This document shows, in pieces, positions 29,447 to 58,452 of a DNA stretch of 64,000 nucleotides (its first letter is position 1; each line of letters begins with the position of its first letter). Source of the stretch: Ensifer adhaerens (lineage in GTDB: Bacteria > Pseudomonadota > Alphaproteobacteria > Rhizobiales > Rhizobiaceae); NCBI RefSeq assembly GCF_002940685.1, contig NZ_PNFP01000003.1, positions 310,001-374,000 of the forward strand, written 5' to 3'. Position numbers and translations under genes: made by a program. The notes under the pieces were generated by a model. That model saw only the letters and a list, made by a program, of their open reading frames with translations, was not told the origin of the DNA and made no database searches.

Positions 29447-30361
29447 TCACGGCGCACCGAGAGCAGAGACCGCGCGCAGCCACTCAATGAATAGCCGCCC
29501 ACTTTCCTTTTTCGGCTTCCTCGCCGGTACAACGACGAAATAGGCTGCCCTGGTGCGGATGGAGGCTTCGGTAAGCCGGACCAGGCGGGTCTGCTGGATG
29601 AGGTCGCCGACCAGGCGGTTCCATCCAAGCGCGATGCCCTGACCGTTCATCGCGGCATAAATCGCCTCCGTGTAGAAGCTGCATCGCAAACCACGGGCTC
29701 TCTTCGGCGCCTTCACGGAAAACGCAGCAAACCATTCGTCCCAACCGGTCCATGTCGGGTCGTCAATGTCGCTTGATATCAGGGGATGCCCAACAAGATC
29801 TTCGGGTGTGCGGATCGGGTCGGCCGTCAGCAAATAATCGGCGCTGCAAATCGGGAAAATCTCGTCCTCGAACAGAAATTCGGCCTGGCCGTCCGACCAG
29901 GTCCCGGTCCCATAGCGGATTGCGAGATCCACATCGCTAGCCTCGATGCGCGTCCTCGTATCCTGTGTGATGATGCGAAGTTTGATTTCGGGGTAGGCGC
30001 GCGAAAACGCGGCGATCCTTGGCAGCAGCCAGAAATGCGAAAAGGAGATGGTGGCGGAGATCGCCAACTCGTCGTCCGGTCCTTCCGCCCGCAGATCGGC
30101 GACCGTGTCCGCGATCAGATTGAACGCGTCGCCCGCCGCGGCTGACAGCAACCTGCCCTTCTCCGTCAGCTCGATCTTGCGGTGGAGCCGCCGAAACAAG
30201 GGGAAACCGAAGTCTTCCTCCAGCAAATGGATCTGCCGGCTTATGGCCGCCTGGGTCACGCCGAGTTCTGCCGCGGCGCGCGTGAAGCTGGACAGTCGTG
30301 CCGCTGCTTCAAACGCCGTCAGGGCGGTGAGCGGCGGCAGCTTCTTCCTGAGGTTCACCAT
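29447..30361 (-). CDS. LysR-family transcriptional regulator (GcvA-like)
   Basis: A 304-residue regulator. Residues about 8-66 are the winged HTH (LTALTAFEAAARLSSFTRAA, LGVTQAAISRQIHLLEED), followed by the LysR substrate-binding domain (ISATISFSHFWLLPRIAAF, LAIRYGTGTWSDG). It is divergent from the Rieske oxygenase gene with a 121-bp gap. By the usual LysR arrangement it is likely to control that operon in response to a substrate or intermediate and to repress itself. The ligand is unknown. Confidence 0.9.
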   Translation of the reverse strand: MVNLRKKLPPLTALTAFEAAARLSSFTRAAAELGVTQAAISRQIHLLEEDFGFPLFRRLHRKIELTEKGRLLSAAAGDAFNLIADTVADLRAEGPDDELAISATISFSHFWLLPRIAAFSRAYPEIKLRIITQDTRTRIEASDVDLAIRYGTGTWSDGQAEFLFEDEIFPICSADYLLTADPIRTPEDLVGHPLISSDIDDPTWTGWDEWFAAFSVKAPKRARGLRCSFYTEAIYAAMNGQGIALGWNRLVGDLIQQTRLVRLTEASIRTRAAYFVVVPARKPKKESGRLFIEWLRAVSALGAP

Positions 30362-30482
30362 CGTTTTGCCATTACATTTGGTATTGTCATGCGCGTATAT
30401 TTGTGCCGTTGAGCGACTAAAAATACTGAGCGATCCTGCCTTTCAGCCCGTCGGCTATTCGATCGGAACATAAGGTGGAATT

Positions 30483-31736
30483 ATGCTGCAGACATTTGCT
30501 TCTCCCATATCGACCCTGCTCGACGCAAGAGCCGAAGGACATTCCCTTCCGGCTGGCCTTTACACACGCGAGGACGTGTTCGAGGCGGATCTCGAGGTGT
30601 TCTTCCGCCGCCACTGGATCTGTATCGGTCTTGAATGCGATGTGCCGGAGCCCGGCGATGCGACGGTTGTCGATATCGGCAAGACCAGCCTCATTCTTCT
30701 TCGCGACGACGACGGCGAGATCCGCGTCATGCACAATGTCTGCCGCCACCGCGGCGCCCGGCTGCTCGATCCAGGCAAGACGATCGTTTCCAAGCTCGTA
30801 TGTCCCTACCACACCTGGACCTATGAACTGACCGGCGAGCTGAGCTACGCGCCTCACATGGGGAAGGGCTTCGACAAGGAATGTCGCAGCCTGAAGCCGG
30901 TGGCCTTCAGGTCGGTGGGAGGCCTCATCTATGTTTGCCTGTCAGACAGTCCGCCGGAAGACATCGGCCGCCTTGTCGACGTCATGGCCGAACGCCTTGC
31001 GCCCTATGACATCAGAAGCGCCAAGGTCGCGTATGAAACCGACGTAGTCGAGCGGGGCAACTGGAAACTCACCATCGAGAATAACCGTGAATGCTACCAC
31101 TGTTCCGCCAATCATCCGGAACTCTGCGTCTCCTTCGTCGATCTCGATTTCGGTTTCGACCCGGACGCACTGAGCCCGGAAGATCGCGCCCAGGCCGAAG
31201 AGCATTTTGCGCTCTACGAAGAACGCACCAAACAATGGGAGGCCGATGGCTATCCGTCCGCAGCCGTCGAGCAACTGCTCGACTGCACCACGAATTTTCG
31301 CACGCAGCGGCTGATTATCTCTGGTGCCGGCGAGTCCCAGACTCCCGATGCAACGGCGGCTTCGGCAAAGCTGCTTGGTACCATGTCACGCAAGGATCTC
31401 GGTGACATGCATCTCTGGGGGCACAACAGCTGGAACCACTTCATGGGCGATCATGCCGTCGTTTCGATCGTCATTCCGCTCTCCGCGGACAGGACGCTGG
31501 TGCGCACGAAATGGCTTGTGCACAAGGACGCCGTCGAAGGCGTCGACTACGATCTCGAGAAGCTGACCAACGTGTGGATCGCCACGACCGATCAGGACGC
31601 GGAACTCGTCGCCCGCTCCCATGCCGGCGTCGAGGATCCCGCCTATGTACCAGGCCCCTACTCACCCTTCTCCGAAACAAACCTCGACAAGTTCGCGTCG
31701 TGGTACATCGACCGGATGCGCGCTCATGGATACTAA
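30483..31736 (+). CDS. Rieske non-heme iron oxygenase, GbcA/Stc2-like betaine N-demethylase
   Basis: A 417-residue oxygenase subunit that would hydroxylate an N-methyl group of a quaternary betaine, releasing formaldehyde. The Rieske [2Fe-2S] ligands are Cys87 and His89 (CRHRG) and Cys107 and His110 (CPYH). The mononuclear iron site is NRECYHCSANHPEL, with two His separated by four residues. The length and the NWKLTIENNRECYHC stretch match the glycine-betaine and stachydrine monooxygenase group rather than aromatic-ring dioxygenases. The ribosome site is AAGGTGG. The 3' end overlaps the reductase gene by 11 bp. Confidence 0.88.
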   Translation: MLQTFASPISTLLDARAEGHSLPAGLYTREDVFEADLEVFFRRHWICIGLECDVPEPGDATVVDIGKTSLILLRDDDGEIRVMHNVCRHRGARLLDPGKTIVSKLVCPYHTWTYELTGELSYAPHMGKGFDKECRSLKPVAFRSVGGLIYVCLSDSPPEDIGRLVDVMAERLAPYDIRSAKVAYETDVVERGNWKLTIENNRECYHCSANHPELCVSFVDLDFGFDPDALSPEDRAQAEEHFALYEERTKQWEADGYPSAAVEQLLDCTTNFRTQRLIISGAGESQTPDATAASAKLLGTMSRKDLGDMHLWGHNSWNHFMGDHAVVSIVIPLSADRTLVRTKWLVHKDAVEGVDYDLEKLTNVWIATTDQDAELVARSHAGVEDPAYVPGPYSPFSETNLDKFASWYIDRMRAHGY

Positions 31737-32811
31737 GAACACCTTTTCTGCAGCCGAGCGTCTTGAGCTTGGCGACGTGTGGGATCGCGACACGGATGAA
31801 GATCTCGTTTGCGTCGATGTCCATCAGGAAACGCACGACGTGAAGACCTTCACCTTCGCGTCGACGCAGGGCAAGCGCTTTTCCTTCGAAGCCGGTCAAT
31901 ATTTCTCGTTCGACCTCGATGTCGACGGCGAACAGGAAAGCCGTTGCTACAGCATCTCGTCGTCGCCGAGGCGCAGCAATGCGTTTTCGGTTACGGTCAA
32001 GCGTGTGGCCGGCGGCAAGATTTCAAACTGGTTTCACGACGAGCTGGCGGTCAATGCCAAGATCAGGGCGAACGGCCCCCTCGGCCAATTCACGCGCCCG
32101 AACGCGAGGAAATATCTGCTTCTGTCCGCAGGATCAGGAATTACGCCCGTCATGGCGATGGTCCGGGAGCTTGCCGACACCTGCGAGCCTGCCGACGTCG
32201 TCTTCATGCATGCGGCGCGAACGCCGAAAGACCTCATCTTCCGCGATGAACTCGCCACGCTCGCCAATCGGGTGAAGGGCCTTCGGCTTCAGCTTCTGCC
32301 GGAAGTCGTTTCCGGCGAAGCCAATTGGCATGGCCTGACCGGCCGCATATCGGCAGCGTACATGTACCTTGCGGTTCCCGATATCGCCGAGCGCGTCGTG
32401 ATGTGTTGCGGTCCGGCGCCTTTCATGGCTGCAGCGCGCGCGATCACTGGCGAACTGGGCGTTCCCCCGTCGAACTATGTCGAGGAAAGCTTTGATGCGG
32501 CCGCGATCGACGACGCTGATGTTGCCGTTGACGAACAGCCTGTCACCCGATCATTCCAGGTCGAGTTCTCCAAGCAGGCCCGAAAGATCGAAGTTGCCGG
32601 AGAGCAGACCATTCTGTCCTGCGCAAAGAAGGCAGGCGTGAAGCTGCCATCATCCTGTTCGAACGGCGTCTGCGGCACGTGCAAGTCCAAGCTCGTATCC
32701 GGCTCGGTCGAGATGAACCACAATGGTGGTATTAGGCAGCGCGAGATCGATGCCGGGCTTTTCCTGCCCTGCTGTTCGAAGCCGCTGAGCGATCTCGTCA
32801 TCGACCGCTAG
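31726..32811 (+). CDS. Oxygenase reductase (FAD, NAD(P)H, C-terminal plant-type [2Fe-2S] ferredoxin), GbcB-like
   Basis: A 361-residue electron-transfer partner of the Rieske oxygenase. The FAD-binding barrel has RCYSISSSP and the NAD domain has LLLSAGSGITPVMAM and CCGPAPFM. After a linker, the C-terminal ferredoxin domain has CSNGVCGTC plus a distal Cys in LPCCSKP. This order is that of GbcB and related hybrid-cluster-like reductases. The ATG at 31726 lies within the end of the oxygenase gene; the in-frame start at 31621 adds residues with no family resemblance. Confidence 0.88.
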   Translation: MDTKNTFSAAERLELGDVWDRDTDEDLVCVDVHQETHDVKTFTFASTQGKRFSFEAGQYFSFDLDVDGEQESRCYSISSSPRRSNAFSVTVKRVAGGKISNWFHDELAVNAKIRANGPLGQFTRPNARKYLLLSAGSGITPVMAMVRELADTCEPADVVFMHAARTPKDLIFRDELATLANRVKGLRLQLLPEVVSGEANWHGLTGRISAAYMYLAVPDIAERVVMCCGPAPFMAAARAITGELGVPPSNYVEESFDAAAIDDADVAVDEQPVTRSFQVEFSKQARKIEVAGEQTILSCAKKAGVKLPSSCSNGVCGTCKSKLVSGSVEMNHNGGIRQREIDAGLFLPCCSKPLSDLVIDR

Positions 32812-32827
32812 GCGCGCGGGTTAAGGG

Positions 32828-32857
32828 ATCCCGACCCAGCCATCGCTGGGCCGGGAT
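32828..32857. terminator. Hairpin between convergent reductase and gfa genes
   Basis: ATCCCGACCCAGC (828-840 of this kilobase) pairs with GCTGGGCCGGGAT across a CATC loop, a 13-bp stem with one mismatch. It fills most of the 49-bp gap between two convergent stop codons and probably ends both transcripts. Confidence 0.7.
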
Positions 32858-32860
32858 ACG

Positions 32861-33433
32861 TCATGCCGGAAGCGCGCCGCTCTTCTTGGCAGCCCATGTG
32901 GCGATCACATCCATCAGGACCGGGTTGAGGCAATCATAGGGTTCGAGCCCCAGCTCGCGCAGCCGACCCCGCACGCCGTCCATCTTCGCTGGATCGTAGC
33001 CGCTCTCGATGATCGAGGAGACGAAGGCGGCAAAGCCGGGCTTCGCCCACCCCGTTTCCTGGAACCGTTCCGGATGCACGAAGGAGAGACCCTTGAACGC
33101 ATGGTCGCGTTCGACCGGGCCGTACATGTGAACGCCGCAGTCCTTGCAGGCATGGCGCTGGATCAGTGCGTTGGGATCAACGACCGCGAGCTTGTTGCCA
33201 TTTTCGAGCACCTCGACATTGGTCGTCGGGGCGACCGCGACGACCGAGAAAACGGCGCCATCGGGCTTCCAGCACTTGGTGCAGCCACAAACATGGTTGT
33301 GGGCGATGTCACCCTTGACGCGGACCTTCACGGGATTGCTCGCGCATTTGCAGACGAGCGTGCCGCCGGAAAAGGCGGCGTCCGTCGCCTTGAACCCGCC
33401 GTCGACGGATGGATGGATCGCTATGCTTGGCAT
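32861..33433 (-). CDS. gfa: Glutathione-dependent formaldehyde-activating enzyme (S-(hydroxymethyl)glutathione synthase)
   Basis: A 190-residue zinc protein that speeds condensation of formaldehyde with glutathione. Cys ligands are seen in [10 protein letters not shown], in [10 protein letters not shown] and in KDCGVHMYG, the Gfa/CENP-V pattern. The start [14 protein letters not shown] is the standard Gfa N-terminus and has a GGAGAAG ribosome site. It is followed on the same strand by the upstream-located formaldehyde dehydrogenase gene, which uses its product. In this island it would detoxify formaldehyde released by betaine demethylation. Confidence 0.92.
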
Positions 33434-33548: not shown

Positions 33549-34676
<1,128 letters not shown>

Positions 34677-34770: not shown

Positions 34771-35700
34771 TTAGAGCGTCTTTTCGACGTCCGGCAGGGC
34801 GTCGAAGAGATCGGCAACCAGACCGTAGTCGGCGACCTGGAAGATCGGTGCCTCTTCGTCCTTGTTGATCGCGACGATGACCTTCGAATCCTTCATGCCG
34901 GCGAGGTGTTGGATGGCGCCGGAAATGCCGCAGGCGATGTAGAGATCGGGTGCGACGACCTTGCCGGTCTGGCCGACCTGCCAGTCGTTCGGGGCGTAAC
35001 CGGCATCGACCGCGGCACGCGACGCGCCGACGGCGGCACCGAGCTTGTCGGCCACCGGCAGGATCACTTCCTGGAACTTTTCCGACGAGCCGAGCGCGCG
35101 ACCACCGGAGATGATGATCTTGGCAGACGTCAGCTCCGGACGGTCGGACGACGACAGGGCGTCGGCGACGAAGCTCGATACGCCCGGATTGGCGGCAGCC
35201 GAAACGCTTTCGATCGCCGCCGAACCGCCTTCAGCGGCCGAGGCAAAGGAGGCGGTGCGCACGGTGATGACGCGCTTGGCTTCGGTCGTCTGCACCGTCT
35301 GGATGGCGTTGCCGGCATAGATCGGACGCTTGAAGGTGTCGGCGGAGACGACCTCGATGATTTCCGAGACCTGGGAGACGTCGAGCAGGGCCGCGACACG
35401 CGGCATGACGTTCTTGCCGACCGAGGTGGCGGCCGCAACGATCGTGTCGTAGTTGCCGGCGAGCGAAACGATCAGGGCTGCGAGCGGCTCGGCCAGGTTG
35501 TTGGCAAGCGACGCGTCGTCGGCGACGAGCACCTTGGCAACACCCGCAAGCTTCGAGGCCTGTTCGGCCGCCTGCTTGGCGCCGGCGCCGGCGACGAGAA
35601 TGTGCACGTCGCCACCGATTTTCGAGGCAGCGCTCAGCGCCTTGGCGGTCTGGTCGGAAAGGTGGTTGCTGTCGTGGTCAGCCAGAAGAAGAATGGCCAT
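34771..35700 (-). CDS. Electron transfer flavoprotein alpha subunit (FixB/EtfA family)
   Basis: A 309-residue ETF alpha subunit. The N-terminal domain starts [14 protein letters not shown]. The C-terminal FAD-binding domain shows [30 protein letters not shown] and [17 protein letters not shown], the family signature. With the beta subunit encoded upstream it would accept electrons from flavin-dependent demethylases such as the StcD/DgcA-like enzyme in the same operon and pass them to ETF-quinone oxidoreductase. It is likely a pathway-dedicated paralogue because of its location. Confidence 0.92.
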
Positions 35701-36517: not shown

Positions 36518-37123
36518 TCAATGTTTCGGTCGATCAGGCAACAGCGCCCAGAAGGCAAACAACGGTGTTTCGCCGGAACGCATGGCGTGCCGGACGCCAG
36601 GCGGATTGTAGAAGGAACCGCCGACCCCGGGTGAGAACCAGTCGGAGCTGCCGTGTTGAAACTCCCCCTCCGATAGGACCAGGTACGTTTCTTCCGGGGC
36701 GTGGTCGTGATCGGGATAACGCACCCTCGGCGCCATCAGCGTGGCGCCGAACCACAGGTCTCTTCGGTCCTCCAGCCCGCCCGGTCCGACGATCATCGTA
36801 TTGGCATGGCTCATCAGGAAATTCTCGCTGGCCGTATGGTCGTAGACCGAGCGCCACTTCCATTCGAGCATCGGTTCAAGGCTGACGAAGCGCTCGATAA
36901 GCGCGTCCAGGGACGGTCGCCCGGTTCTTGTTGCCAGAACGCTCTCAAGATGTCGTTGGCAGACCGGAAGACGTTTGCCGATGTTCAAGCGTTGGGGTTG
37001 CGGCGCTTTGAGTTGCGCAAATATCTCCATGACCGAGCGACGCGCTCTGAGATCCTGAGCGAACTGGTCGAACGCGACGAAAACTGCGTCCAGAAAAACC
37101 TGCAGAGCGTCGGACCGCTCCAT
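36518..37123 (-). CDS. Cupin of the DMSP-lyase-like (DddQ/DddL/Cupin-DLL) group
   Basis: A 201-residue protein. The N-terminal about 100 residues are helical; the C-terminal half is a cupin barrel. The metal set His139, His141, Glu145, Tyr147 and His179 (in YPDHDHAPEETY and GVRHAMRS) matches the DMSP-lyase cupin pattern, as does IVGPGGLEDRRDLWFGATLM. Known relatives cleave dimethylsulfoniopropionate to DMS and acrylate; many homologues have no tested function. Its ATG lies 2 bp after the stop of the StcD/DgcA-like demethylase gene and it precedes the ETF genes, so it is probably co-translated in betaine metabolism. The substrate is unproven. Confidence 0.75.
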   Translation of the reverse strand: MERSDALQVFLDAVFVAFDQFAQDLRARRSVMEIFAQLKAPQPQRLNIGKRLPVCQRHLESVLATRTGRPSLDALIERFVSLEPMLEWKWRSVYDHTASENFLMSHANTMIVGPGGLEDRRDLWFGATLMAPRVRYPDHDHAPEETYLVLSEGEFQHGSSDWFSPGVGGSFYNPPGVRHAMRSGETPLFAFWALLPDRPKH

Positions 37124-37125: not shown

Positions 37126-39162
37126 TCAGAGATCCTTGGCAAGACGCAGCGCGTCATAGATGGCGGCATGCGTGTTGCGGGCAGCGACCGCGTCGCCGAT
37201 CCGGAAGAGCTGGTAGGCCCCTTCGGGGTTGCGCTCAACCGATTGCGGCGTGCCGGAAATCAGCTCGTCGTAGGAGACCTCGCCGAGGTTTCTCGAGCCA
37301 GGCTTCAGTTCGAAATAGAGGTCGTCGAGCGGGATGGTGCCGTGATTGACGACGATCTGGTCGAAGGTCTGCTGCTTGGCCACACCGCCATAGTCACTGC
37401 CGACATGGGCGATGATCTGATTGCCGCTCTTTTCCGCAGCCTCCAGCCTGTAGGTGACGGTGAAGGTCACATCGAGCTTCTGCAGCGAGCGCATGTAGGG
37501 AACGAGGTTCATCGCCATGACCTCCGGTGCGAAGGAGCGATCCGGCGTCATGATCTCGACCTTGGCGCCCGCCTTGGCGAGGAACTCCGCAGCCTGCAGC
37601 CCCGCATGGTCGCCGGCGTCATCGAAAATGAGCACGTTGGTTCCAGGTTTTACATCGCCTGAGATGATGTCCCAGGAGGAAACGACGAGCTCGTTGCCCC
37701 TTGAAAGAACCTCCGTGTGCGGCAGTCCGCCCGTCGCGATGATAACCACGTCCGGCATTTCGGCAAGCACGGTGTCTGCCTCGGCCCAGGTGTTGAACCG
37801 GAAGGTGACGCCGAGTTTTTCGCACTGGCTCATGCGCCAGTCGACGATGCTGATCATTTCCCGCCGGCGCTCGCTCTGGGCTGTCAACCGGATCTGTCCG
37901 CCCGGATGGTTCGCGGCCTCGAAAACGACGACGTCATGTCCTCGCTCGGCGGATACACGAGCGGCTTCAAGACCGGCGGGGCCCGCCCCCACGATGACAA
38001 TCTTTTTCCGGGCAGCGGCCTTCGGGATCCGATGCGGCATCGTTTCTTCACGGCCGGTCGCGGCGTTATGGATGCAGAAGGCCAGTCCCCCTTGGTAGAT
38101 CCGGTCGAGACAGTAGTTGGCACCGACGCAAGGGCGGATATCATCCTCGCGCTTTTCCATGATCTTCCGCACGATATGCGGGTCGGTCATATGGGCGCGG
38201 GTCATACCGATCATGTCGACCTTGCCGGCAGCGATTGCGTGACGAGCCGTCGCCACGTCCTGGATCTTGGCGGCATGGAAGGTCGGGAACTTGGTTGCCG
38301 CACGCACATCGCCGGCAAAATCCAGATGCGGCGCGCTCGCCATCCCCTGAATCGGGATGACATCCGTCAGGCCCGGATCCGTATCGATATGACCGCGGAT
38401 GACATTCAGATAATCGATGAGGCCGCTTTCCTTGAGACGACGGGAGATCTCCAGGCCTTCGGCCTTTCCGGTCCCGCCGGGAAGACATTCATCTGCCGTA
38501 TAGCGAACGCCAAGGATAAAGTCGTTGCCGACCCTTTCGCGCATGGCTTTGAAGACGTCGAAACAAAAGCGCAAACGGTTATCGAGCGAACCGCCGTAGG
38601 GACCGTCGAGTTCGTTGGTAAGCGGCGAAGTGAACTGGTCAATAAGATGCCCGTAGGCTTCCAGCTCGACACCATCCATACCGCCCGCCTTCATCCGTTC
38701 GGCGGCGTCCGCAAAGTCCTTGATAATGCGCTCGATGTCCCAGTCTTCAAGCTTCTTCGGAAAGGCTCGGTGCGCTGCCTCGCGATGATGTGAGGGTGCA
38801 ACGACCGGGAGCCAATCGCCCTTGTCCCAGCGGGTACGCCTGCCGAGGTGCGTGAGCTGGATCATGATCGCAGCTCCCTCTTCATGGACCGCGTCGGTCA
38901 TTTGCCGGATCCACGGCACGATCTCGTCCTTGTAGGCGAGCAGGTTGTTGAAGACCGGAGGGCTGTCCTTGGAGACCGCCGCCGAGCCAGCGGTCATCGT
39001 CAGCGCCACGCCGCCCCTTGCCCGCTCAACCGTATAGGCGCGGTAACGGTCCTTCGGCATGCCGTCTTCGGGATAAGCAGGCTCGTGAGACGTGACAATG
39101 ATGCGGTTGCGCAGGGTCAAATGCTTCAACTGAAACGGCTGAAGCAGGGGATCGTTCGACAT
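37126..39162 (-). CDS. StcD/DgcA-like flavin-dependent N-demethylase (OYE/TMADH-type, FMN/FAD/Fe-S)
   Basis: A 678-residue enzyme. Residues 1-335 form an Old Yellow Enzyme TIM barrel (LRNRIIVTSHEPAYPEDGMP, IQLTHLGRRT, DGVELEAYGHLIDQF). A Fe-S region has Cys345, Cys351 and Cys363 (CVGANYC and the Cys in LAFC). The C-terminal half has an FAD domain (VIVGAGPAGLEAARV). This layout is that of dimethylglycine demethylase DgcA and N-methylproline demethylase StcD. It would demethylate a secondary or tertiary N-methyl compound and feed electrons to the ETF encoded downstream. It is divergent from a TetR gene that likely regulates it. Confidence 0.87.
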   Translation of the reverse strand: MSNDPLLQPFQLKHLTLRNRIIVTSHEPAYPEDGMPKDRYRAYTVERARGGVALTMTAGSAAVSKDSPPVFNNLLAYKDEIVPWIRQMTDAVHEEGAAIMIQLTHLGRRTRWDKGDWLPVVAPSHHREAAHRAFPKKLEDWDIERIIKDFADAAERMKAGGMDGVELEAYGHLIDQFTSPLTNELDGPYGGSLDNRLRFCFDVFKAMRERVGNDFILGVRYTADECLPGGTGKAEGLEISRRLKESGLIDYLNVIRGHIDTDPGLTDVIPIQGMASAPHLDFAGDVRAATKFPTFHAAKIQDVATARHAIAAGKVDMIGMTRAHMTDPHIVRKIMEKREDDIRPCVGANYCLDRIYQGGLAFCIHNAATGREETMPHRIPKAAARKKIVIVGAGPAGLEAARVSAERGHDVVVFEAANHPGGQIRLTAQSERRREMISIVDWRMSQCEKLGVTFRFNTWAEADTVLAEMPDVVIIATGGLPHTEVLSRGNELVVSSWDIISGDVKPGTNVLIFDDAGDHAGLQAAEFLAKAGAKVEIMTPDRSFAPEVMAMNLVPYMRSLQKLDVTFTVTYRLEAAEKSGNQIIAHVGSDYGGVAKQQTFDQIVVNHGTIPLDDLYFELKPGSRNLGEVSYDELISGTPQSVERNPEGAYQLFRIGDAVAARNTHAAIYDALRLAKDL

Positions 39163-39946: not shown

Positions 39947-40747
39947 ATGGAAACGGGCGGGCCTTTGAGGGTTGGCGTAATTGGTGGTGCGGGATGGCTG
40001 GGCGGAGCAATCGCCGACGCCATTCTCGACGCCGGCGTCGTCAAGCCTCAGAACCTGTCACTCTCCTATCGCAGCGAGCGCCCCGACCGTTTCAACCGCT
40101 CCTTCTGGACAACGGACAATCAGGAGCTTGCCGACCGTTCGGACGTTATCGTTCTCTCCGTCCGTCCGGCCGACTGGCCCAGCCTGAACGTGGTTGCCGA
40201 GGGCAAACTTCTCATCTCCGTCATGGCGGGCATCCGCCTGAAGGCTCTGAGTGAGCACCACCGCACAGACCGCGTGGTCCGCACCTTGCCCAACGCCGCG
40301 GCCGAAGTTCGCAAGTCCTATACCCCATGGATCGCCAGCGCCGGTATGCAAGACAACGATCGGACGATCGTACGAGCAATCTTCGATGCCTGCGGTTTTC
40401 AGGATGAAATGCGCTCGGAGGCCGAGATTGACTATCTGACTGGCCTCACCGGATCGGGTCCAGCCTTTCCGGCGCTGCTCGCTGCCGCGATGATGGCAGA
40501 TGCCATCTCGCACGGACTGAAGCCCGAGATCGCCAAGCGCGCCGTCAACGCCCTCGTCGTGGGCGCCGGCCGGATGCTGGAACAGCGTGACGACTGTCCG
40601 ACCGACATTGTCCAGACCTTCCTCGACTACCGCGGCACCACTGCGGCCGCGATCGAGGAAATGCGCACGGCCGGCTTTGATGCCGCCGTTTCGCGCGGGC
40701 TGTCGGCAGCGTTCAGGAAATCGGTTCGCATGGGAGAAGCCTCCTAG
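39947..40747 (+). CDS. Pyrroline-5-carboxylate reductase (ProC family) paralogue
   Basis: A 266-residue NAD(P)H-dependent imine reductase. The Rossmann motif is VGVIGGAGWLGGAIADAIL, the middle has VIVLSVRPADW and RTLPNAAAEV, and the C-terminal dimer domain has LTGLTGSGPAFPALLAAAMM. I use the ATG at 39947; one at 39920 would overlap the TetR gene by 20 bp but has no ribosome site. Housekeeping ProC makes proline. In this setting the enzyme could instead reduce a cyclic imine arising from betaine demethylation or act in reverse; this is inference from context. Confidence 0.82.
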   Translation: METGGPLRVGVIGGAGWLGGAIADAILDAGVVKPQNLSLSYRSERPDRFNRSFWTTDNQELADRSDVIVLSVRPADWPSLNVVAEGKLLISVMAGIRLKALSEHHRTDRVVRTLPNAAAEVRKSYTPWIASAGMQDNDRTIVRAIFDACGFQDEMRSEAEIDYLTGLTGSGPAFPALLAAAMMADAISHGLKPEIAKRAVNALVVGAGRMLEQRDDCPTDIVQTFLDYRGTTAAAIEEMRTAGFDAAVSRGLSAAFRKSVRMGEAS

Positions 40748-47012: not shown

Positions 47013-47726
47013 TCACACACCGAGAGAAATCGCCATCCCTTCCGGGGCGGCATACATCGCCATGTTCTTGCGCGATAGATCGAGGTGAGCGCGGATCAAC
47101 GCCTCCGCTCGGTCAGCATCGTGGTTCGCGATCGCATCGATAATTTCGTCGTGCTGGCGCGACGCCTCATGTAATTCTTCCAACATGCGCGCGTTGCTCG
47201 GTCTGTAGAAAATCTTGCCGATACGCGCATGATCAATCAGCAGCCGGCGAAGGCTTGGAAGAACGTACGCATTGTTCGCGATCTCGCCGACCCGAAGGTG
47301 AAATTTGTCGTTGTAGAAGACGCGTCCGTCGACGTCATTGCTGTGGACCGCGTCGCGAAAGCTGTCCTGTATCTCGCGCAGGCCCGCGATATCAGCCTTC
47401 GACGCGTGTTCGGCGGCGAGCCGCGTGGCCGCAACATAGATCATCGGTGCGATCAAAAAGAAATCCCGAAGGGATTGGTAGCTCATTGAGGTCACACGGG
47501 CAGGTCGGTTCGCCTCAAGCTCGATGAACCCTTCCCCCGCAAGCTGCCGCATCGCTTCGCGCACTGGAGGGCGAGAGAGCCCAAATTCCTCGCTCAAGGC
47601 GACTTCGTCCAGAACCGATCCCGGCGCTATCTGCATCGTCAGGATGCGGTGGCGCAAGGTGTTGTTCAGCGCGGCCTTTCGATCCGGACCAACGCCTGCT
47701 TCAGGTGAGCTTTGATTGTGCGCCAT
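47013..47726 (-). CDS. GntR-family regulator with FCD domain
   Basis: A 237-residue repressor-type protein. The winged HTH is at about residues 20-80 (LDEVALSEEFGLSRPPVREA, MRQLAGEGFIELEANR), followed by the FCD ligand domain with metal-binding His residues (FHLRVGEIANN, ASRQHDEIIDAI). A strong AAGGAG ribosome site precedes the ATG. The palindrome TCTA-N7-TAGA lies 26 bp upstream of its start and recurs before the divergent aldehyde dehydrogenase gene, so auto-repression and control of that operon are likely. It resembles HypR-type regulators of hydroxyproline catabolism in context. Confidence 0.9.
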   Translation of the reverse strand: MAHNQSSPEAGVGPDRKAALNNTLRHRILTMQIAPGSVLDEVALSEEFGLSRPPVREAMRQLAGEGFIELEANRPARVTSMSYQSLRDFFLIAPMIYVAATRLAAEHASKADIAGLREIQDSFRDAVHSNDVDGRVFYNDKFHLRVGEIANNAYVLPSLRRLLIDHARIGKIFYRPSNARMLEELHEASRQHDEIIDAIANHDADRAEALIRAHLDLSRKNMAMYAAPEGMAISLGV

Positions 47727-49554: not shown

Positions 49555-50439
49555 ATGACCAATTTCCCGTTTCCCGGACTGAACCTCGCAATCGCAACGC
49601 CCTTCGATGCCGAGGGCCGGATCGACTACACGAGGCTCGAGCAGAATATCGAGCGCTATCTGGCGCTCGGCGTGCCAGGCTTCGTGTTGAGCTCTGGCAC
49701 CGGCATGCATGTGTATTTGACGAAAGAAGAATCGAAGGAGCTCGTGCAGCGCGGCTCAAGGATCATCAATGGCCGAGCCAAGGTGATCGCCCAAACCTCC
49801 GCACTTTTGACCGCCGACGTGGTCGAGCGGACGAAATTTGCGGCCGATTGCGGCGCTGATGGCGTCATGGTCCTGCCGCCCTTCTTCGAGGGCCCGACGG
49901 ACGATGAGAGCATCATCGACTTCTACGCGGAAGTGGCGGCTGCCGGTCTTCCGGTCATCGGCTACAACGTTCCGCACGCCGTCGGCGTGACCGTGACGCC
50001 GGAGCTTCTCAAGCAGCTTTGCGCGATCCCGAACTTCTGTGCCGTCAAGGACTCGAGCGGTGATCTCGGCAAGCAGGCATCGCTCATTCGTACCGGCCTC
50101 CCGGTCATGAACGGCGCCGACCACCTCGTTCCCTTCGCACTCTGGTCCGGAGCGAGCGGCCTCATCTGGGGTGGCGCCAACTTTGCGCCGCGCACTGCGC
50201 TCGCGCTGGTCGCGGCTGCTGCCGCCGGCGAATGGGGCAAGGCGCGCGACATCTGGTCCCTGCTCGAACCGGCAATGTCGCTCATCTGGGAAGGCGACTA
50301 CGTGCAGTCGGTCTATGCCGCCGCCGAACTCACCAGCTTTGGTGCTGGCGCGCCGCGCAAGCCGCTCCGTCCGCTGCCTGCTCACCGGATCGAAACCATC
50401 CGCGCTGCCCTCGGCAGCCTCATCGAACGGGAAGCCTGA
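49555..50439 (+). CDS. DapA-like class I lyase/deaminase, copy 1
   Basis: A 294-residue DHDPS-family TIM barrel. The Schiff-base Lys165 (AVKDSSGD) and Tyr137 (GYNVP) are present. The usual GTTGE loop is altered to SSGTGMH (residues 46-52), so the pyruvate-carboxylate pocket differs from copy 2. Family members in hydroxyproline pathways deaminate Δ1-pyrroline-4-hydroxy-2-carboxylate to 2-oxoglutarate semialdehyde. That role fits between the oxidase encoded downstream and the aldehyde dehydrogenase encoded upstream. True lysine-pathway DapA is unlikely here. Confidence 0.85.
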   Translation: MTNFPFPGLNLAIATPFDAEGRIDYTRLEQNIERYLALGVPGFVLSSGTGMHVYLTKEESKELVQRGSRIINGRAKVIAQTSALLTADVVERTKFAADCGADGVMVLPPFFEGPTDDESIIDFYAEVAAAGLPVIGYNVPHAVGVTVTPELLKQLCAIPNFCAVKDSSGDLGKQASLIRTGLPVMNGADHLVPFALWSGASGLIWGGANFAPRTALALVAAAAAGEWGKARDIWSLLEPAMSLIWEGDYVQSVYAAAELTSFGAGAPRKPLRPLPAHRIETIRAALGSLIEREA

Positions 50440-52988: not shown

Positions 52989-53876
52989 ATGGAATGGCTT
53001 TATGAATTCCCACACATGAACGACGACGCTCTTCGCGCGCTGAAGAAAGCGATCGACGAAGGTTTCCGGTCGTTCACACGCGCCTATGGCGACGTCATCG
53101 AGGGCTTCTTTTCGCCCTTGCAGCACTTCTTGATCGCTTCCGAGCGCTTCATGACCCAAACGCCCTGGCCCATTATTATCATCATCATCCTGGCGATCGC
53201 CTGGGGCGCGAGCAGAAGCTTGAAGGTCGTGCTCGGCTGTCTGGTGACCCTCTTGGCGATCGGCTATTTCGACATGTGGGACGACACGATGCGGACGATC
53301 TCGATGATCTTCGTCTGCACGCTGCTGTCGATCGCCATCGGCATTCCGATCGGCATTCTGATGTCTCGCTCCGACCGCCTCCAGCGGGTCGTCAACCCGG
53401 TGCTCGACGTCATGCAGACCATGCCGAGCTTCGTCTACCTGATCCCTGTCGTCATGCTCCTCGGGATCGGCAAGGTGCCGGGCCTCATCGCCGTCGTCAT
53501 CTATGCCATCCCGCCGATGATCAGGCTCACCAACCTTGGCATTCGCCTGGTCGACAAGGATGTTCTCGAAGCCGCTGACGCCTTCGGCTCGTCGAGCTGG
53601 CAAAAGCTCAAGAACGTGCAGCTGCCGTTGGCGCTCCCGACGATCATGGCCGGCATCAACCAGACGATCATGATGGCGCTTGCCATGGTGGTCATCGCCT
53701 CGATGATCGGCGTACAGGGCCTAGGCCAACCGGTGCTGAAGGCGATCGCCAATCAGTACTTCACGCTCGGCATCTTCAACGGGCTTGCGATCGTCGGCAT
53801 CGCCATCATCTTCGACCGGGTCAGCCAGGCCTACGGCGAGAGACTGCAGAAGCACCGGGAGATCGTCCATGGCTGA
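52989..53876 (+). CDS. Glycine/proline-betaine ABC transporter permease, copy 2
   Basis: A 295-residue permease, same length as copy 1. It shares the MWDDTMRTISMIFVC helix, DVMQTMPSFVYLIPVVMLLG and the coupling segment EAADAFGSSSWQKLKNVQLP; the AFG-to-KL stretch in that segment is one of few diverged spots. The ribosome site AGGAGGAA is strong. The end overlaps the ATPase start by 8 bp. It forms the membrane channel of the second importer. Confidence 0.92.
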   Translation: MEWLYEFPHMNDDALRALKKAIDEGFRSFTRAYGDVIEGFFSPLQHFLIASERFMTQTPWPIIIIIILAIAWGASRSLKVVLGCLVTLLAIGYFDMWDDTMRTISMIFVCTLLSIAIGIPIGILMSRSDRLQRVVNPVLDVMQTMPSFVYLIPVVMLLGIGKVPGLIAVVIYAIPPMIRLTNLGIRLVDKDVLEAADAFGSSSWQKLKNVQLPLALPTIMAGINQTIMMALAMVVIASMIGVQGLGQPVLKAIANQYFTLGIFNGLAIVGIAIIFDRVSQAYGERLQKHREIVHG

Positions 53877-55018: not shown

Positions 55019-55930
55019 ATGAAGTTCGAAGGCATCTACACCCCGGCCATCACCCCGATCGAGCAAGACGGGAAGATCGACCGCAAGGGTTTTGCAGTCG
55101 TGCTCGAGTCCCTGATTGAAGCGGGCGTTCACGGCATCATCATTGGCGGATCAACCGGCGAATATTACGCCCAGAGCGCGGAGGAACGCTTCGCCCTCGC
55201 CGCCCTCGCCAGGGATGTGATCGGTTCACGCCTGCCGCTTGTCGTCGGGACGGGTGCCACCAGAACGGAGGACTCCGTGGCGTTTGCCAAGGCGGCCAAG
55301 GAGATCGGCGCCGACGCCATTCTCGTGTCGTCGCCACCTTACGCACTGCCGACCGAGGAGGAGAACGCGGTCCACGCGCTGACGGTGGATCGGGCAGCGG
55401 GTCTCCCGATCATGCTCTACAACTACCCGGCCCGCATGGGCGTGATGATGGGGGACGCATACTTCTCCCGCGTCAGCGAATCCAGAAACGTCGTGGCGAT
55501 CAAGGAAAGCTCCGGCGACATGGCCAATCTCCACCTGCTCGCCCGCAAGTACCCGCATATCGCTCTTTCCTGCGGCTGGGATGACCAGGCACTCGAATTC
55601 TTCGCCTGGGGCGCAAGGAGCTGGGTCTGCGCCGGCTCCAACTTTCTGCCGAAGGAACATGTCGCCCTCTATGAGGCCTGCGTCATCGAGAAGAACTTCG
55701 ACAAGGGACGGGCGATCATGACGGCGATGCTGCCGCTCATGGATTTCCTCGAATGCGGCAAGTTCGTCCAGTCGATCAAACACGGTTGCGAACTGAAAGG
55801 CCTGCCGGCGGGACCGGCCCGGGCACCGCTCGGTCCGCTCAACACCAATGAAAAGGAAACACTCGAGACGATCGTCGCGACTCTGAAACGCGATGTCGCC
55901 CAAATTGTCGCAGGAAATCGCCATGCGTGA
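55019..55930 (+). CDS. DapA-like class I lyase/deaminase, copy 2
   Basis: A 303-residue DHDPS-family protein with the canonical loop GSTGE (residues 44-48), Tyr134 (LYNYP) and Schiff-base Lys162 (AIKESSGD). It is thus closer to the standard DHDPS/deaminase pattern than copy 1 and only distantly similar to it. It is followed 63 bp later by the second DAO-like gene, repeating the DapA-DAO pairing. Likely substrates are cyclic imino acids from (hydroxy)proline isomers, but this is inferred from context. Confidence 0.87.
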   Translation: MKFEGIYTPAITPIEQDGKIDRKGFAVVLESLIEAGVHGIIIGGSTGEYYAQSAEERFALAALARDVIGSRLPLVVGTGATRTEDSVAFAKAAKEIGADAILVSSPPYALPTEEENAVHALTVDRAAGLPIMLYNYPARMGVMMGDAYFSRVSESRNVVAIKESSGDMANLHLLARKYPHIALSCGWDDQALEFFAWGARSWVCAGSNFLPKEHVALYEACVIEKNFDKGRAIMTAMLPLMDFLECGKFVQSIKHGCELKGLPAGPARAPLGPLNTNEKETLETIVATLKRDVAQIVAGNRHA

Positions 55931-55993
55931 GCGAATGATCGCAACCAGAGCAATCACCAGGTTGCGCCTTCAGAGAATGAGGGAGACGCCCCG

Positions 55994-57340
55994 ATGATCA
56001 CGCGGCCCGTCAAACGCTTGCCTGTCGAAAATGGCATCTCGGGCTGGGAGGCGATCAGCCGACGTTCGTTTTCGGTCCGCAGTCTCGACAGCCACGTGAA
56101 CGCCGACTGGCTGATCATCGGGGCAGGCTTTGCCGGGCTTTCTGCAGCGCGCCGCCTGCTGCAACTGCGTCCCGATGACAAGATCGTTGTTCTCGAGGCG
56201 AGTGAGGTCGGCAAGGGCACGTCGGGTCGGAACTCCGGCTACATGATCGACGTGCCGCACAACCTGTCATCCGGCGAATATTCAAGCGGAGGCGCTGACA
56301 GCACGCGCCGGGAAATGGCCCAGAACCGCTACGCGATCGAGTTCGCCAGCCAAGCGGCGGAAGCCTATGGGATGTCGCGCGAGACCTTCGACCCGGCAGG
56401 CAAGATCAACGCAGCTGCGACGGCCCGCGGCATGAAGCTCAACAGGAGCTTTGGCCAGTCGCTCAAGGTCGCGGACGAGAAACACACCCACCTCGACGCC
56501 GCAGAGATGCGCGCGATAACGGGCTCGAACTATTACCTCGGCGGCCTTTACACGCCCGGCGCAGTGCTTATCCAGCCGGCGGACTACGTGCGCCAGTTCG
56601 CTGCCGGCCTTTCACACGACATCAATCTCTTCGAGCGATCTCCGGTGACGTCGCTCCAGCGCGAAAACGGCATTTGGACGGCATTGACCGCGCATGGTTC
56701 GGTCAGCGCGCCCAAGGTCATTCTCGGCGTCAACGGCCATGTGGAGGATTTTGGCCATTTCGGCGGGCGGCTGATGCACATCTTCGCCTACGCCTCGATG
56801 ACCGCGCCGTTTTCCGCCGACGGTATCGGGCGCAAAGCGTCCGGTCGGGATCGCTGGGCCTTGCTCCCGGCCGACGCAATGGGTGCCACCGTGCGCAAGA
56901 TCACGTCAGGTGGCCAGTCGCGGATCGTGATCCGCACCAAATACACCTACGACACGACGCTCACCCTTTCGCAAAGCCGCCTCTCGAAAATGGCGCAAGC
57001 GCATCGACGTTCGATGGATGCGAGATTTCCCGACCTTGCGGGAATACCGTTCGAGCACAGTTGGGCAGGTCGTCTTTGCCTCAGCCTCAACCACGTACCA
57101 GCCTTCGGCGAGATCGACGAAAGCCTCTTTTCCGCCTGCTGCGAGAATGGGCTTGGCACCGTCAAAAGCACACTTGCCGGCATCATGGCCGCCAACCTGG
57201 CGACAGGGTCCGCCTCACGGGAACTCGAGGAATACATGAACCACCGCGACCCAGCCCGGCTCCCGCCCGAGCCATTTGCCTGGCTCGGCGTAAACTCGGT
57301 GATCCGATTGCAAGAACTGCGCGCGGGCCGGGAGGGGTGA
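55994..57340 (+). CDS. FAD-dependent D-amino-acid-oxidase-like oxidoreductase, copy 2
   Basis: A 448-residue DAO-family flavoprotein paralogous to the one at 50443. FAD motif WLIIGAGFAGLSAARRLLQL, then GRNSGYMIDVPHNLSSGEYS, and ACCENGLGTVKSTLAGIMAA near the C-terminus. The shared N-terminal segment before the FAD motif (about 45 residues, with GISGWEAI like GVSGWVAM of copy 1) marks the two as one subfamily. It probably oxidises a different isomer or methylation state than copy 1. Confidence 0.87.
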   Translation: MITRPVKRLPVENGISGWEAISRRSFSVRSLDSHVNADWLIIGAGFAGLSAARRLLQLRPDDKIVVLEASEVGKGTSGRNSGYMIDVPHNLSSGEYSSGGADSTRREMAQNRYAIEFASQAAEAYGMSRETFDPAGKINAAATARGMKLNRSFGQSLKVADEKHTHLDAAEMRAITGSNYYLGGLYTPGAVLIQPADYVRQFAAGLSHDINLFERSPVTSLQRENGIWTALTAHGSVSAPKVILGVNGHVEDFGHFGGRLMHIFAYASMTAPFSADGIGRKASGRDRWALLPADAMGATVRKITSGGQSRIVIRTKYTYDTTLTLSQSRLSKMAQAHRRSMDARFPDLAGIPFEHSWAGRLCLSLNHVPAFGEIDESLFSACCENGLGTVKSTLAGIMAANLATGSASRELEEYMNHRDPARLPPEPFAWLGVNSVIRLQELRAGREG

Positions 57341-57438
57341 CCTTCACTGAGTGAACAGGCACGTAGGGTGAATTTCAACGGGGTCTCTCGATCACGAAGA
57401 ACTCGCCACCAGACAGTGGACATCAAGGTAGGCTTGAA

Positions 57439-58452
57439 ATGATAACGACCATGAAATCCAGTGTACCGCCGACGAACCGCCTCAGGATCGGCTTCGTGCT
57501 TGCGCGGTCCTTCACGCTTTCCGCCTTTGCTCTCTTCGTCGACACGCTCAGGCTTGCGAGCGACGAACTCGACAAGTCGGGGCGTGTCCGCGCCGACTGG
57601 CAGGTGCTTGGCAACACCCGGCATCTGATCAGCTCCAGCTGCGGAGTGCAGGTGGCACCGACGTCGGATCTCGTCGATCCCGCGCAGTTCGGCTACATCG
57701 TCGTGGTCGGTGGCCTGCTCACCTGTGAGAGCCCAATCGACAACGAAACCGTCAGCTTCCTCAAGAAGGCAGCCGCGCGAAAGGTGCCGTTGATCGGTCT
57801 TTGCACCGGAACGTTCATCCTGGCCGACGCTGGCCTGATGACGGGGCACAATGTCTGCGTCAGCTGGCTCCACTACCAGGCGTTCCGCGAACGTTTCCCG
57901 GATCTCAAGGTTCGTTCGGACCGCCTGTTCAATCTCGACCGCACCCGTGGCTCCTGCGCCGGTGGCAGCAGTGCGGCCGACATGGCCGCCCATATCGTGC
58001 GACTGCATATCAGCAAAGAAGCGGAGCGAAATGCACTCGAAGTGCTGCAGATCGACAAGGCGCGGTCGCACCTTCATGTCCAGCCGAGAAAGCCGCTGGC
58101 GATCGAGAGCAACGATCCTCGCTTAAACGCGGCCCTCATCATCATGGAACAGCATATCGAGAACACAATTTCGATCCCGGAACTGGCCTCGTCGGTCGGC
58201 TTGTCGCGGCGGCAGCTTGAGCGCCTGTTCATGGGAAAGGCGAAAATGTCGCCAGCGCTCGTCTACCGGAAGTTTCGGCTGGAGCGCGCCAAACATCTCC
58301 TCACCCAGACCGATGCATCGCTGATCGAAATCGCCCTTGAAGTCGGCTTCGAAAGCGCCGGGCACTTCTCCAGAATATTTGCCAGGACCTACGGACAAAC
58401 ACCGAACCAGCTCAGAGCGCAAACGCCGCAGACTTCCAGTGGCAGCGCCTAA
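57439..58452 (+). CDS. GlxA-family AraC transcriptional regulator (DJ-1/PfpI-like domain + AraC HTH)
   Basis: A 337-residue regulator. Residues about 15-200 form a DJ-1/PfpI-like domain with LIGLCTGTFILADAGLMTGH. The C-terminal 100 residues form an AraC double HTH (ISIPELASSVGLSRRQLERL, LIEIALEVGFESAGHFSRIF). This architecture is that of GbdR, CdhR and ArgR, which respond to glycine betaine, carnitine or arginine in pseudomonads. Its place at the end of the betaine island makes a betaine-responsive activator likely. Confidence 0.9.
   Translation: MITTMKSSVPPTNRLRIGFVLARSFTLSAFALFVDTLRLASDELDKSGRVRADWQVLGNTRHLISSSCGVQVAPTSDLVDPAQFGYIVVVGGLLTCESPIDNETVSFLKKAAARKVPLIGLCTGTFILADAGLMTGHNVCVSWLHYQAFRERFPDLKVRSDRLFNLDRTRGSCAGGSSAADMAAHIVRLHISKEAERNALEVLQIDKARSHLHVQPRKPLAIESNDPRLNAALIIMEQHIENTISIPELASSVGLSRRQLERLFMGKAKMSPALVYRKFRLERAKHLLTQTDASLIEIALEVGFESAGHFSRIFARTYGQTPNQLRAQTPQTSSGSA

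What the first reader, a model, noticed from the sequence alone, without database searches (positions are those of the whole stretch)
29447..58452. A 29-kb island that looks like a complete betaine-to-2-oxoglutarate route
Seen: Rieske oxygenase plus reductase, gfa, frmA, ETF alpha and beta, StcD/DgcA-like demethylase, second OYE-type enzyme, ProC-like and LDH2-like imine reductases, two DAO-like and two DapA-like enzymes, an aldehyde dehydrogenase and two betaine importers. Known: stachydrine and hydroxyproline-betaine pathways use Rieske demethylation, ETF-linked demethylation, a DAO-type oxidase, a DapA-like deaminase and 2-oxoglutarate semialdehyde dehydrogenase. Inferred: the substrate is proline betaine and/or 4-hydroxyproline betaine. 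I find no enolase-superfamily or proline-racemase-type epimerase, so this step would be encoded elsewhere or not be needed.
Basis: partly seen in the sequence, partly recalled or inferred. Interest (0 to 1): 0.7.

Follow-up and report, generated by a model that had tools for sequence, protein, structure and literature searches.

The report
Betaine-eating island with DMSP-lyase-like enzyme
A root-associated bacterium carries a gene island that seems to import and strip down proline-type betaines made by plants, and in its middle sits an overlooked enzyme that databases call a marine DMSP lyase but that probably does something else there.

Summary
Same-genus genome G001 has the whole island, G002 all that its contig shows. 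"Complete route" is only partly supported: of six same-genus genomes with the core, three have the DAO/DapA/ALDH part at the locus, and no HpbD-type 2-epimerase was found in island or genome.

Its model matches DddQ lyases best, and seven residues shared with DddQ are invariant in the 42 sequences aligned. It lies near OYE1 in 73 of 80 loci and ProC in 69, mostly in rhizobia, where it is often named DMSP lyase, although R. leguminosarum 3841 has no known DMSP catabolism (PMC3338564, passages).

Best reading: a proline-type betaine island whose cupin acts on the alpha carbon of a (hydroxy)proline or its betaine, as 3-hydroxyl eliminase or epimerase. That step is inferred.

The parts
29447..30361 (-). 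LysR regulator
   Evidence: PF03466/PF00126; beside the Rieske gene also in G001, G010, G014
30483..31736 (+). Rieske oxygenase, predicted first N-demethylation of a betaine
   Evidence: PF00848/PF00355; 4qup, 3vca (Stc2, name recalled) and 3n0q at 342-343 bits; own clade apart from Stc2-like rows
31726..32811 (+). Rieske reductase (FAD, NAD, 2Fe-2S)
   Evidence: PF00970/PF00175/PF00111; GbcB model 326.3 bits, cut-off 500; start moved by eye
32861..33433 (-). gfa, S-(hydroxymethyl)glutathione synthase
   Evidence: TIGR02820 311.6 bits over cut-off 234.55; start moved by eye
33549..34676 (-). frmA, glutathione-dependent formaldehyde dehydrogenase
   Evidence: TIGR02818 583 bits over cut-off 543.95; start moved by eye
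34771..35700 (-). ETF alpha
   Evidence: PF01012/PF00766
35724..36473 (-). ETF beta
   Evidence: PF01012; start moved by eye
36518..37123 (-).
   Evidence: PF16867 177.5 bits; model pLDDT 92.7; six best Foldseek matches are DddQ-type lyases; residues shared with DddQ invariant in the 10 and 42 sequences aligned
37126..39162 (-). OYE1, StcD/DgcA-like flavoenzyme, predicted second N-demethylation with ETF
   Evidence: PF00724; homologues at 72-83% beside Stc2-like Rieske genes in L098, L103, L104, L106
39310..39939 (+). TetR regulator
   Evidence: PF00440; in 73 of 80 cupin loci
39947..40747 (+). ProC-like cyclic-imine reductase
   Evidence: PF14748/PF03807; in 69 of 80 cupin loci; start moved by eye
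40812..41813 (+). betaine-type binding protein, importer 1
   Evidence: PF04069; best PDB match 7yle, 241.2 bits; start moved by eye
41915..42802 (+). importer 1 permease
   Evidence: PF00528
42795..43874 (+). importer 1 ATPase
   Evidence: PF00005; start moved by eye
43997..45982 (+). OYE2, second OYE-type flavoenzyme with four-Cys FeS motif
   Evidence: PF00724; motif; in 21 of 80 cupin loci; start moved by eye
45984..47006 (+). LDH2-like imine reductase
   Evidence: PF02615; best PDB match 1wtj/2cwf/2cwh, delta1-piperideine-2-carboxylate reductase, 133.5 bits; start moved by eye
47013..47726 (-). GntR regulator
   Evidence: PF07729/PF00392
48053..49552 (+). aldehyde dehydrogenase, predicted 2-oxoglutarate semialdehyde dehydrogenase
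   Evidence: PF00171; no cut-off reached in the 25 of 39 NCBIfam families shown; start moved by eye
49555..50439 (+). DapA1, predicted imine deaminase
   Evidence: PF00701
50443..51789 (+). DAO1, FAD amine/imino-acid oxidase
   Evidence: PF01266
51898..52899 (+). binding protein, importer 2
   Evidence: PF04069; start moved by eye
52989..53876 (+). importer 2 permease
   Evidence: PF00528
53869..54906 (+). importer 2 ATPase
   Evidence: PF00005; start moved by eye
55019..55930 (+). DapA2
   Evidence: PF00701; homologues at 81-85% in 12 of the other 296 family genomes searched
55994..57340 (+). DAO2
   Evidence: PF01266
57439..58452 (+). AraC/GlxA-type regulator, GbdR-like
   Evidence: PF12833/PF01965; GbdR model 219.5 bits, cut-off 480

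Best explanation
A probably inducible island for uptake and catabolism of plant proline-type betaines (proline betaine and hydroxyproline betaines). Importers take up the betaine. The Rieske/reductase pair removes the first N-methyl as formaldehyde; OYE1 with ETF removes the second; Gfa and FrmA detoxify the formaldehyde. A separable module (DAO, DapA, ALDH) oxidises the D-configured 4-hydroxyproline product to 2-oxoglutarate. ProC- and LDH2-like enzymes reduce cyclic imines to proline. The DMSP-lyase-family cupin uses its metal and tyrosine to pull off the alpha proton of a (hydroxy)proline or its betaine. I commit to beta-elimination of a 3-hydroxyl giving the imine for ProC/LDH2 (about 0.3), with 2-epimerisation next (about 0.2). 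Shown: gene content, operon layout, conservation, predicted fold, residues shared with DddQ. Inferred: every reaction and substrate.
For: Families and operon order. Same island in G001 and, as far as its contig reaches, G002; close counterpart on pRL12. Cupin near OYE1 in 73 of 80 loci, ProC in 69, an SBP1-type binding protein in 66; median gap cupin-OYE1 56 bases. In 42 of the 80 loci, those with at least 8 kb on both sides, an imine reductase is present in 34, a DAO in 11, a reductase without DAO in 23, a DAO without reductase in 0. In 40 chosen OYE1 neighbourhoods, some cut by contig ends, ProC occurs in 4 of 6 with the cupin and 0 of 34 without (p=1.6e-4, not corrected for kinship). Fold and shared residues. 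DAAO/DHDPS/ALDH for 4-hydroxyproline and OCD/MLD2 reductases for 3-hydroxyproline dehydration: PMC4113996 (passages).
Against: No activity is shown and no substrate is fixed. Importer 1's nearest solved relative is 7yle, DMSP-binding DmpX (PMC10030565; the passage naming 7yle was not shown, residue numbers fit). Two cupin loci also hold HpbD (L169, L205), and the cupin co-occurs with the Cys/Gly racemase-family gene in 6 of the 13 family genomes that have it, so it is not a simple substitute for either. L160, L193 and L195 hold the cupin with no island homologue above threshold; 8 of 42 loci have no imine reductase by the script's thresholds, and L094 and L095 have cupin but no ProC. The 80 loci were found by peptide patterns that include Y136, H139 and H141, so invariance of these three is partly selected. 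OYE2 has no clear place. Of 19 island proteins scanned against NCBIfam only Gfa and FrmA pass a cut-off.
Confidence: 0.5

Rival explanations
1. The cupin is the missing 2-epimerase: it racemises proline or hydroxyproline betaine in place of HpbD or a proline-racemase-family enzyme, so that the D-specific DAO branch can work.
For: No HpbD found in the genome and no proline-racemase-family gene in the island. Of 13 family genomes with DapA2 at 81% or more, 12 have the Cys/Gly racemase-family gene; the exception is the window's genome, which has the cupin. In L202 and L205 the run DapA2-ALDH-DAO2-importer-ProC is followed by the cupin and lacks that gene.
Against: HpbD and cupin share loci L169 and L205. 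Cupin and Cys/Gly gene co-occur more than by chance, 6 of 13 genomes with the gene against 11 of 284 without. Of 19 cupin genomes that I chose because no DAO was seen at the locus, 11 have no DAO2 homologue at E<=1e-60, so a D-product would need another oxidase. Known lyase relatives use a single base (recalled).
Confidence: 0.2
2. The cupin is a true DMSP lyase and the island also handles imported DMSP.
For: Six best structural matches are DddQ-type lyases; aligned active-site residues conserved; the binding protein's nearest solved relative is DmpX; public annotation says DMSP lyase.
Against: R. [quoted passage not shown] the genes may have been uninduced there. Operon partners are N-demethylases; the sequence match to solved lyases is weak (best E 2e-5).
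Confidence: 0.08
3. Two unrelated pathways lie side by side: a stachydrine-to-proline core and a 4-hydroxyproline module; the cupin is auxiliary (sensor, side-product removal).
For: The module is separable; racemase-family genes lie elsewhere in the genome, one (C4) near distant ALDH, LDH2, DapA and GntR homologues; degenerate paralogues of the cupin also occur, showing that forms without the metal site exist.
Against: The module recurs beside the core in several rhizobial loci, and the island cupin keeps the residues shared with DddQ in all sequences aligned.
Confidence: 0.25
4. The substrate is another quaternary amine (glycine betaine, carnitine, pipecolate betaine).
For: Rieske and reductase match the GbcA and GbcB models best, below cut-off; the Qat3 system was credited with residual glycine betaine uptake (PMC6421345, section 33).
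Against: GbcA score 408.7 against cut-off 670; the genome has a second Rieske protein with a better GbcA score, 516.3, also below cut-off; imine reductases, DAO and DapA do not fit glycine betaine or carnitine.
Confidence: 0.15

Closest known systems
Hydroxyproline/proline betaine pathway with HpbD (Zhao 2013, Kumar 2014; not seen, recalled and as cited in PMC4113996)
   Same: Rieske demethylation, second demethylase, DAO-type oxidase, DapA-type deaminase, aldehyde dehydrogenase, betaine importer
   Different: No HpbD found; a DMSP-lyase-family cupin and ProC/LDH2/OYE2 are present
Stachydrine catabolism of Sinorhizobium meliloti (Stc2, StcD)
   Same: StcD-like OYE1, Rieske distantly related to Stc2
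   Different: Rieske about 40% identical to Stc2-like proteins beside OYE1 homologues elsewhere; L098, L103, L104 and L106 lack cupin and ProC in the fetched stretch
DddQ/DddL/DddW/DddK/DddY cupin DMSP lyases and lyase-like cupins
   Same: Family PF16867, predicted fold, aligned active-site residues
   Different: 18-22% identity in the six best structural matches; operon of N-demethylases; hosts mostly soil and plant bacteria by name
trans-4- and trans-3-hydroxyproline operons (PMC4113996)
   Same: DAAO, DHDPS, ALDH and MLD2 families
   Different: No proline-racemase-family gene in the island; betaine importers and demethylases added
R. johnstonii 3841 pRL12, about 557-585 kb
   Same: Cupin, OYE1, ETF, ProC, importer 1, Ldh, FrmA, Gfa, DapA2-ALDH-DAO, Rieske
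   Different: Has a Cys/Gly racemase-family gene, fghA and another importer; no OYE2 or DapA1-DAO1 set in the stretch shown

Membership tests
DMSP lyase (cupin type) | Match to the DMSP_lyase family and cupin fold of DddQ | tested here: met
   PF16867 177.5 bits, cut-off 27; Foldseek ranks 1-6 all DddQ-type lyases, TM 0.70-0.73 of query length
DMSP lyase (cupin type) | Metal ligands and catalytic tyrosines | tested here: met
   Y136, H139, H141, E144, E145, Y147, H179 align with identical residues of DddQ 4la2, invariant in 10 of 10 and 42 of 42 (pattern-selected in part); which of them bind metal is recalled, Y131 is in the title of 4la3
DMSP lyase (cupin type) | DMSP or acrylate genes alongside | tested here: not met
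   no hit over cut-off to an acrylate enzyme in the 19 island proteins scanned; ETF and FrmA match acryloyl-CoA-reductase models far below cut-off
DMSP lyase (cupin type) | Releases DMS from DMSP | not testable with these tools
   needs an assay; indirect evidence in 3841 is against
Hydroxyproline-betaine pathway | Rieske demethylase, second demethylase, DAO, DapA, ALDH in one cluster | tested here: met
Hydroxyproline-betaine pathway | HpbD-type betaine 2-epimerase | tested here: not met
   best-scoring own-genome match to the L205 homologue 27%, none over 32%; the homologue matches 4e8g at 557.7 bits (HpbD identity of 4e8g recalled)
Stc2 stachydrine demethylase | Orthology of the Rieske protein to Stc2 | tested here: not met
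   supported 18-row clade without the Stc2-like rows (long branches flagged by the tool elsewhere in the tree)
GbcAB glycine betaine monooxygenase | NF058607 and NF058606 over cut-off | tested here: not met
   408.7 of 670 and 326.3 of 500
trans-4/trans-3-hydroxyproline catabolism | Proline-racemase-family epimerase or dehydratase in the cluster | tested here: not met
   none in the island; three elsewhere

The most novel reading that the evidence does not exclude
A large clade of so-called DMSP lyases in soil bacteria, mostly rhizobia, are not DMSP lyases but enzymes of plant betaine catabolism: metal cupins that take the alpha proton of a proline-type betaine or its demethylated product and eliminate a 3-hydroxyl or invert the centre, a job that to my knowledge is known only from enolase-superfamily, proline-racemase-family and aconitase-X enzymes. 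They would give the cupin lyase-like family a function on land.
Probability: 0.4. Interest if true: 0.7.

Novelty: new variant of a known kind. Interest (0 to 1): 0.5.

Why it matters
Proline betaine is exuded by Medicago seeds and tied to nodulation in S. meliloti (PMC12239276, passages). A binding protein (QatX3) that probably belongs to this island's importer in R. leguminosarum is raised about 7- to 30-fold in bean and pea bacteroids (PMC6421345, section 33). If the cupin is a betaine enzyme, rhizobial genes named DMSP lyase (10 of the 25 plasmid rows listed, out of 209 records) are misnamed and would mislead surveys of DMS production in soil. It would also give a testable function to lyase-like cupins and could explain the missing alpha-carbon step.

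Tried and rejected
Cupin as plain replacement for HpbD: weakened by two loci with both. Cupin as plain replacement for the Cys/Gly racemase-family gene: weakened by positive co-occurrence, 6 of 13. An enolase-superfamily gene next to the Labrys loci (L094-L096) was considered as epimerase and rejected by eye for lack of the second lysine. The own-genome MR_MLE proteins were read by eye and then tested against an HpbD homologue. ProC relatives at 37-42% (L235-L241) have no other close island homologue nearby. A class-wide HpbD search at E<=1e-80 found 1 of 385 genomes, too few for a co-occurrence test; no cupin was seen in the 20 kb around it (L242). Paper searches for a link between cupin DMSP lyases and proline or hydroxyproline betaine found none in their listings; the library lacks most subscription papers, so this does not show that it is unpublished. 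A 2018 Biochemistry paper on lyase-like cupins is recalled, not seen. The single-sequence structure job was useless (pLDDT 33.6); a second job used an alignment.
Full report
WHAT IS THERE. Pfam finds, in order: LysR; Rieske oxygenase and reductase; on the other strand gfa, frmA, etfA, etfB, a cupin and the OYE1 flavoenzyme; then TetR, ProC-like, importer 1 (binding protein, permease, ATPase), OYE2, LDH2-like; GntR; aldehyde dehydrogenase, DapA1, DAO1, importer 2, DapA2, DAO2, AraC. Of 19 island proteins scanned against NCBIfam, Gfa and FrmA pass a cut-off; the others match only at family level or not at all. It starts 2 bases behind the end of OYE1 and lies before etfB, so OYE1-cupin-etfB-etfA-frmA-gfa look like one operon.

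BOUNDARIES AND MODULES. Of 16 same-genus genomes (own included), 6 carry the cupin at 73-100% identity: G000, G001, G002, G010, G013, G014. G001 has the whole island; G002 has it from etfB to AraC, where its contig begins (permeases were not among the queries). In G010, G013 and G014 the fetched stretches lack the ALDH-DapA-DAO part; G010 and G014 have no DAO2 homologue anywhere at E<=1e-60, G013 has one elsewhere. In G014 the locus is reduced further: etf and frmA not found, gfa and OYE2 partial. The XdhC-UbiX-UbiD-amidohydrolase genes after 58.7 kb were not found behind the island in G001 and G002, so I leave them out.

THE CUPIN. It scores 177.5 bits to PF16867 DMSP_lyase but is only distantly like solved lyases by sequence (5cu1 E 2e-5). 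A model from 42 sequences has pLDDT 92.7, and its six best PDB matches are DddQ-type lyases (TM 0.70-0.73 of the query length). In the alignment with DddQ 4la2 Y136, H139, H141, E144, E145, Y147 and H179 meet identical residues; counted along that chain the first six are Y120, H123, H125, E128, E129, Y131 (H179 meets H163 by recall). The title of 4la3 is a DddQ Y131A mutant with DMSP. All seven are invariant in 10 sequences from synteny and in 42 (the window plus 41 of the 80 loci). The scan used the peptides VRYPDHDH and G[IV]GGSFYN, so Y136, H139 and H141 are in part selected; E144, E145, Y147 and H179 lie outside both. Paralogues at about 35-37% in G003, G004, G008, G013, G015 and L091 have lost most of these residues; a more distant one in G008 keeps several.

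WHO HAS IT. The scan (one genome for each of 84,980 species) found 117 relatives, of which the tool kept 80: mostly Rhizobium, Ensifer/Sinorhizobium and Shinella, with Neorhizobium, Mesorhizobium, Phyllobacterium, Labrys and Ancylobacter, and single loci in Amaricoccus and Marinobacterium. On plasmids 209 of 72,556 records match at E<=1e-20. In the 80 loci, by the thresholds: OYE1 73, TetR 73, ProC 69, SBP1-type binding protein 66, EtfB 30, OYE2 21, Rieske 20, LDH2 18, DapA2 14, ALDH 14, DAO2 11, MttB 4, HpbD 2. Many contigs end next to the cupin, so these are lower bounds; with at least 8 kb on both sides (42 of 80) Rieske is in 18 and ProC in 32. Three loci (L160, L193, L195) show no island homologue at all.

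CONTRAST WITH STACHYDRINE LOCI. I fetched 40 OYE1 neighbourhoods, chosen from the matches in 297 order genomes; some are cut by contig ends. Six have the cupin. ProC is in 4 of 6 with it and 0 of 34 without (p=1.6e-4); OYE2 in 4 of 6 and 1 of 34 (p=7.8e-4). The genomes are related, so these p-values are optimistic. L098, L103, L104 and L106 pair OYE1 with an Stc2-like Rieske (39-42% to ours) and show neither cupin nor ProC. In a tree of 33 rows (31 different) the window's Rieske sits in a supported clade of 18 apart from those rows; the GbcA-like protein of its own genome (C55) is outside too, but on a long branch whose place is unsure. Both Rieske types occur with the cupin: of the 20 loci with a Rieske, 15 have our type (76-90%) and 5 the Stc2-like (40-41%).

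WHAT THE CUPIN MAY DO. DMSP lyases take the alpha proton and lose the beta group (recalled). In hydroxyproline operons that kind of chemistry is done by proline-racemase-family enzymes: 4-hydroxyproline epimerase with DAAO, DHDPS and ALDH, and trans-3-hydroxyproline dehydratase with OCD or MLD2 reductases (PMC4113996, passages). The island holds both sets of partners, DAO/DapA/ALDH and MLD2(LDH2)/ProC, but no racemase-family gene. The LDH2 protein's best solved relative is delta1-piperideine-2-carboxylate reductase. An imine reductase goes with the cupin more often than a DAO does (34 against 11 of 42; DAO without reductase 0), and 11 of 19 cupin genomes without DAO at the locus lack a DAO2 homologue at E<=1e-60 (I did not submit every such locus, and distant D-amino-acid dehydrogenases were not sought). 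That favours elimination giving an imine over epimerisation. For epimerisation: no HpbD found, and two loci, L202 and L205, where the cupin follows a DapA2-ALDH-DAO2-importer-ProC run that lacks the Cys/Gly racemase-family gene; L205 has HpbD and another racemase-family gene further on.

THE RACEMASE-FAMILY GENE THAT IS MISSING. In Rhizobiaceae genomes a racemase-family protein with Gly for the second catalytic Cys (PMCGA plus SPGGTG in 13 of 13 at 76% or more; PMCGH plus SPCGTG in the 17 of 17 lower-ranked ones examined; the roles of the Cys are recalled and from PMC4113996) lies in an operon with a betaine-type importer: of 13 fetched loci, DAO2 and the binding protein are in 13, DapA2, ALDH and GntR in 12, AraC in 11, ProC in 4. 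Of 13 family genomes with DapA2 at 81% or more (own included), 12 have it; the window's genome does not. It co-occurs with the cupin in 6 of its 13 genomes, so the two are not strict alternatives.

DMSP LYASE? Public annotation says so (RL_RS35500; 10 of the 25 rows listed). [quoted passage not shown] leguminosarum J391) as unable to catabolise DMSOP (PMC10686828, passages; that J391 derives from 3841 is recalled). The genes may not have been induced there. The importer's nearest solved relative is 7yle, which I take as RnDmpX: the paper names 7yle once in a passage not shown, and the residue numbers fit. DmpX binds DMSP and hardly betaine, choline, carnitine or TMAO (PMC10030565, passages); proline betaine is not among the ligands named in the passages I saw. 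Of the eight pocket residues named there, six are kept in importer 1; Glu113 is Gln and Ala153 is Gly, by my reading of the alignment.

BIOLOGY. The 3841 counterpart spans about 557-585 kb of pRL12. Qat3 (pRL120514-6) was credited with residual glycine betaine uptake, and a QatX3 orthologue rises about 7- to 30-fold in bacteroids (PMC6421345, section 33). That Qat3 is RL_RS35470-35480 is my inference from gene order and position; no call maps the old tags.

VERDICT. Observation confirmed, interpretation partly supported. The island is a variant of known proline-type betaine catabolism. The real find is the conserved, probably misnamed DMSP-lyase-family cupin in its demethylase operon.

Noticed in passing
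L251-L263; L233:8803-9801; L250:32452-33450: A proline-racemase subfamily with the second catalytic Cys replaced by Gly and CGH by CGA, in a betaine-importer/DapA/ALDH/DAO operon; named 4-hydroxyproline epimerase in strain 3841. It may act on betaines.
   Followed up: partly
L250:20290-20985 and second cupin hits at about 12.6 kb in L146, L149, L152, L155, L158, L161, L177, L178, L182, L192: A second, degenerate DMSP-lyase-family paralogue after etfA in Rhizobium; in 3841 it lacks most residues shared with DddQ yet is annotated as DMSP lyase family protein.
   Followed up: partly
37126-39162 and L060-L089: OYE1 and homologues have Cys-x-x-Ala-x-x-Cys where OYE2 has Cys-x-x-Cys: 29 of 30 loci matched the search pattern, so the FeS cluster may have three Cys ligands.
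   Followed up: no
L209:11880-12527; L169:16723-18285: Trimethylamine-methyltransferase (MttB)-like genes, named by eye, in or near cupin loci; 4 of 80. They could replace the Rieske demethylase.
   Followed up: no
58717-63593: XdhC, UbiX, UbiD and two amidohydrolases next to the island but not found behind it in G001 and G002.
   Followed up: no
28834-29088: Small ORF that by eye resembles a fragment of an aldo/keto reductase.
   Followed up: no
23451-28746: TonB receptor, periplasmic binding protein and FecCD permease, by family an iron-siderophore uptake set, just before the island.
   Followed up: no
L131:1119-1493: Short racemase-family piece (124 aa, SPGGTG) in a cluster that has the cupin; may be a decayed gene or a contig-end effect.
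   Followed up: no
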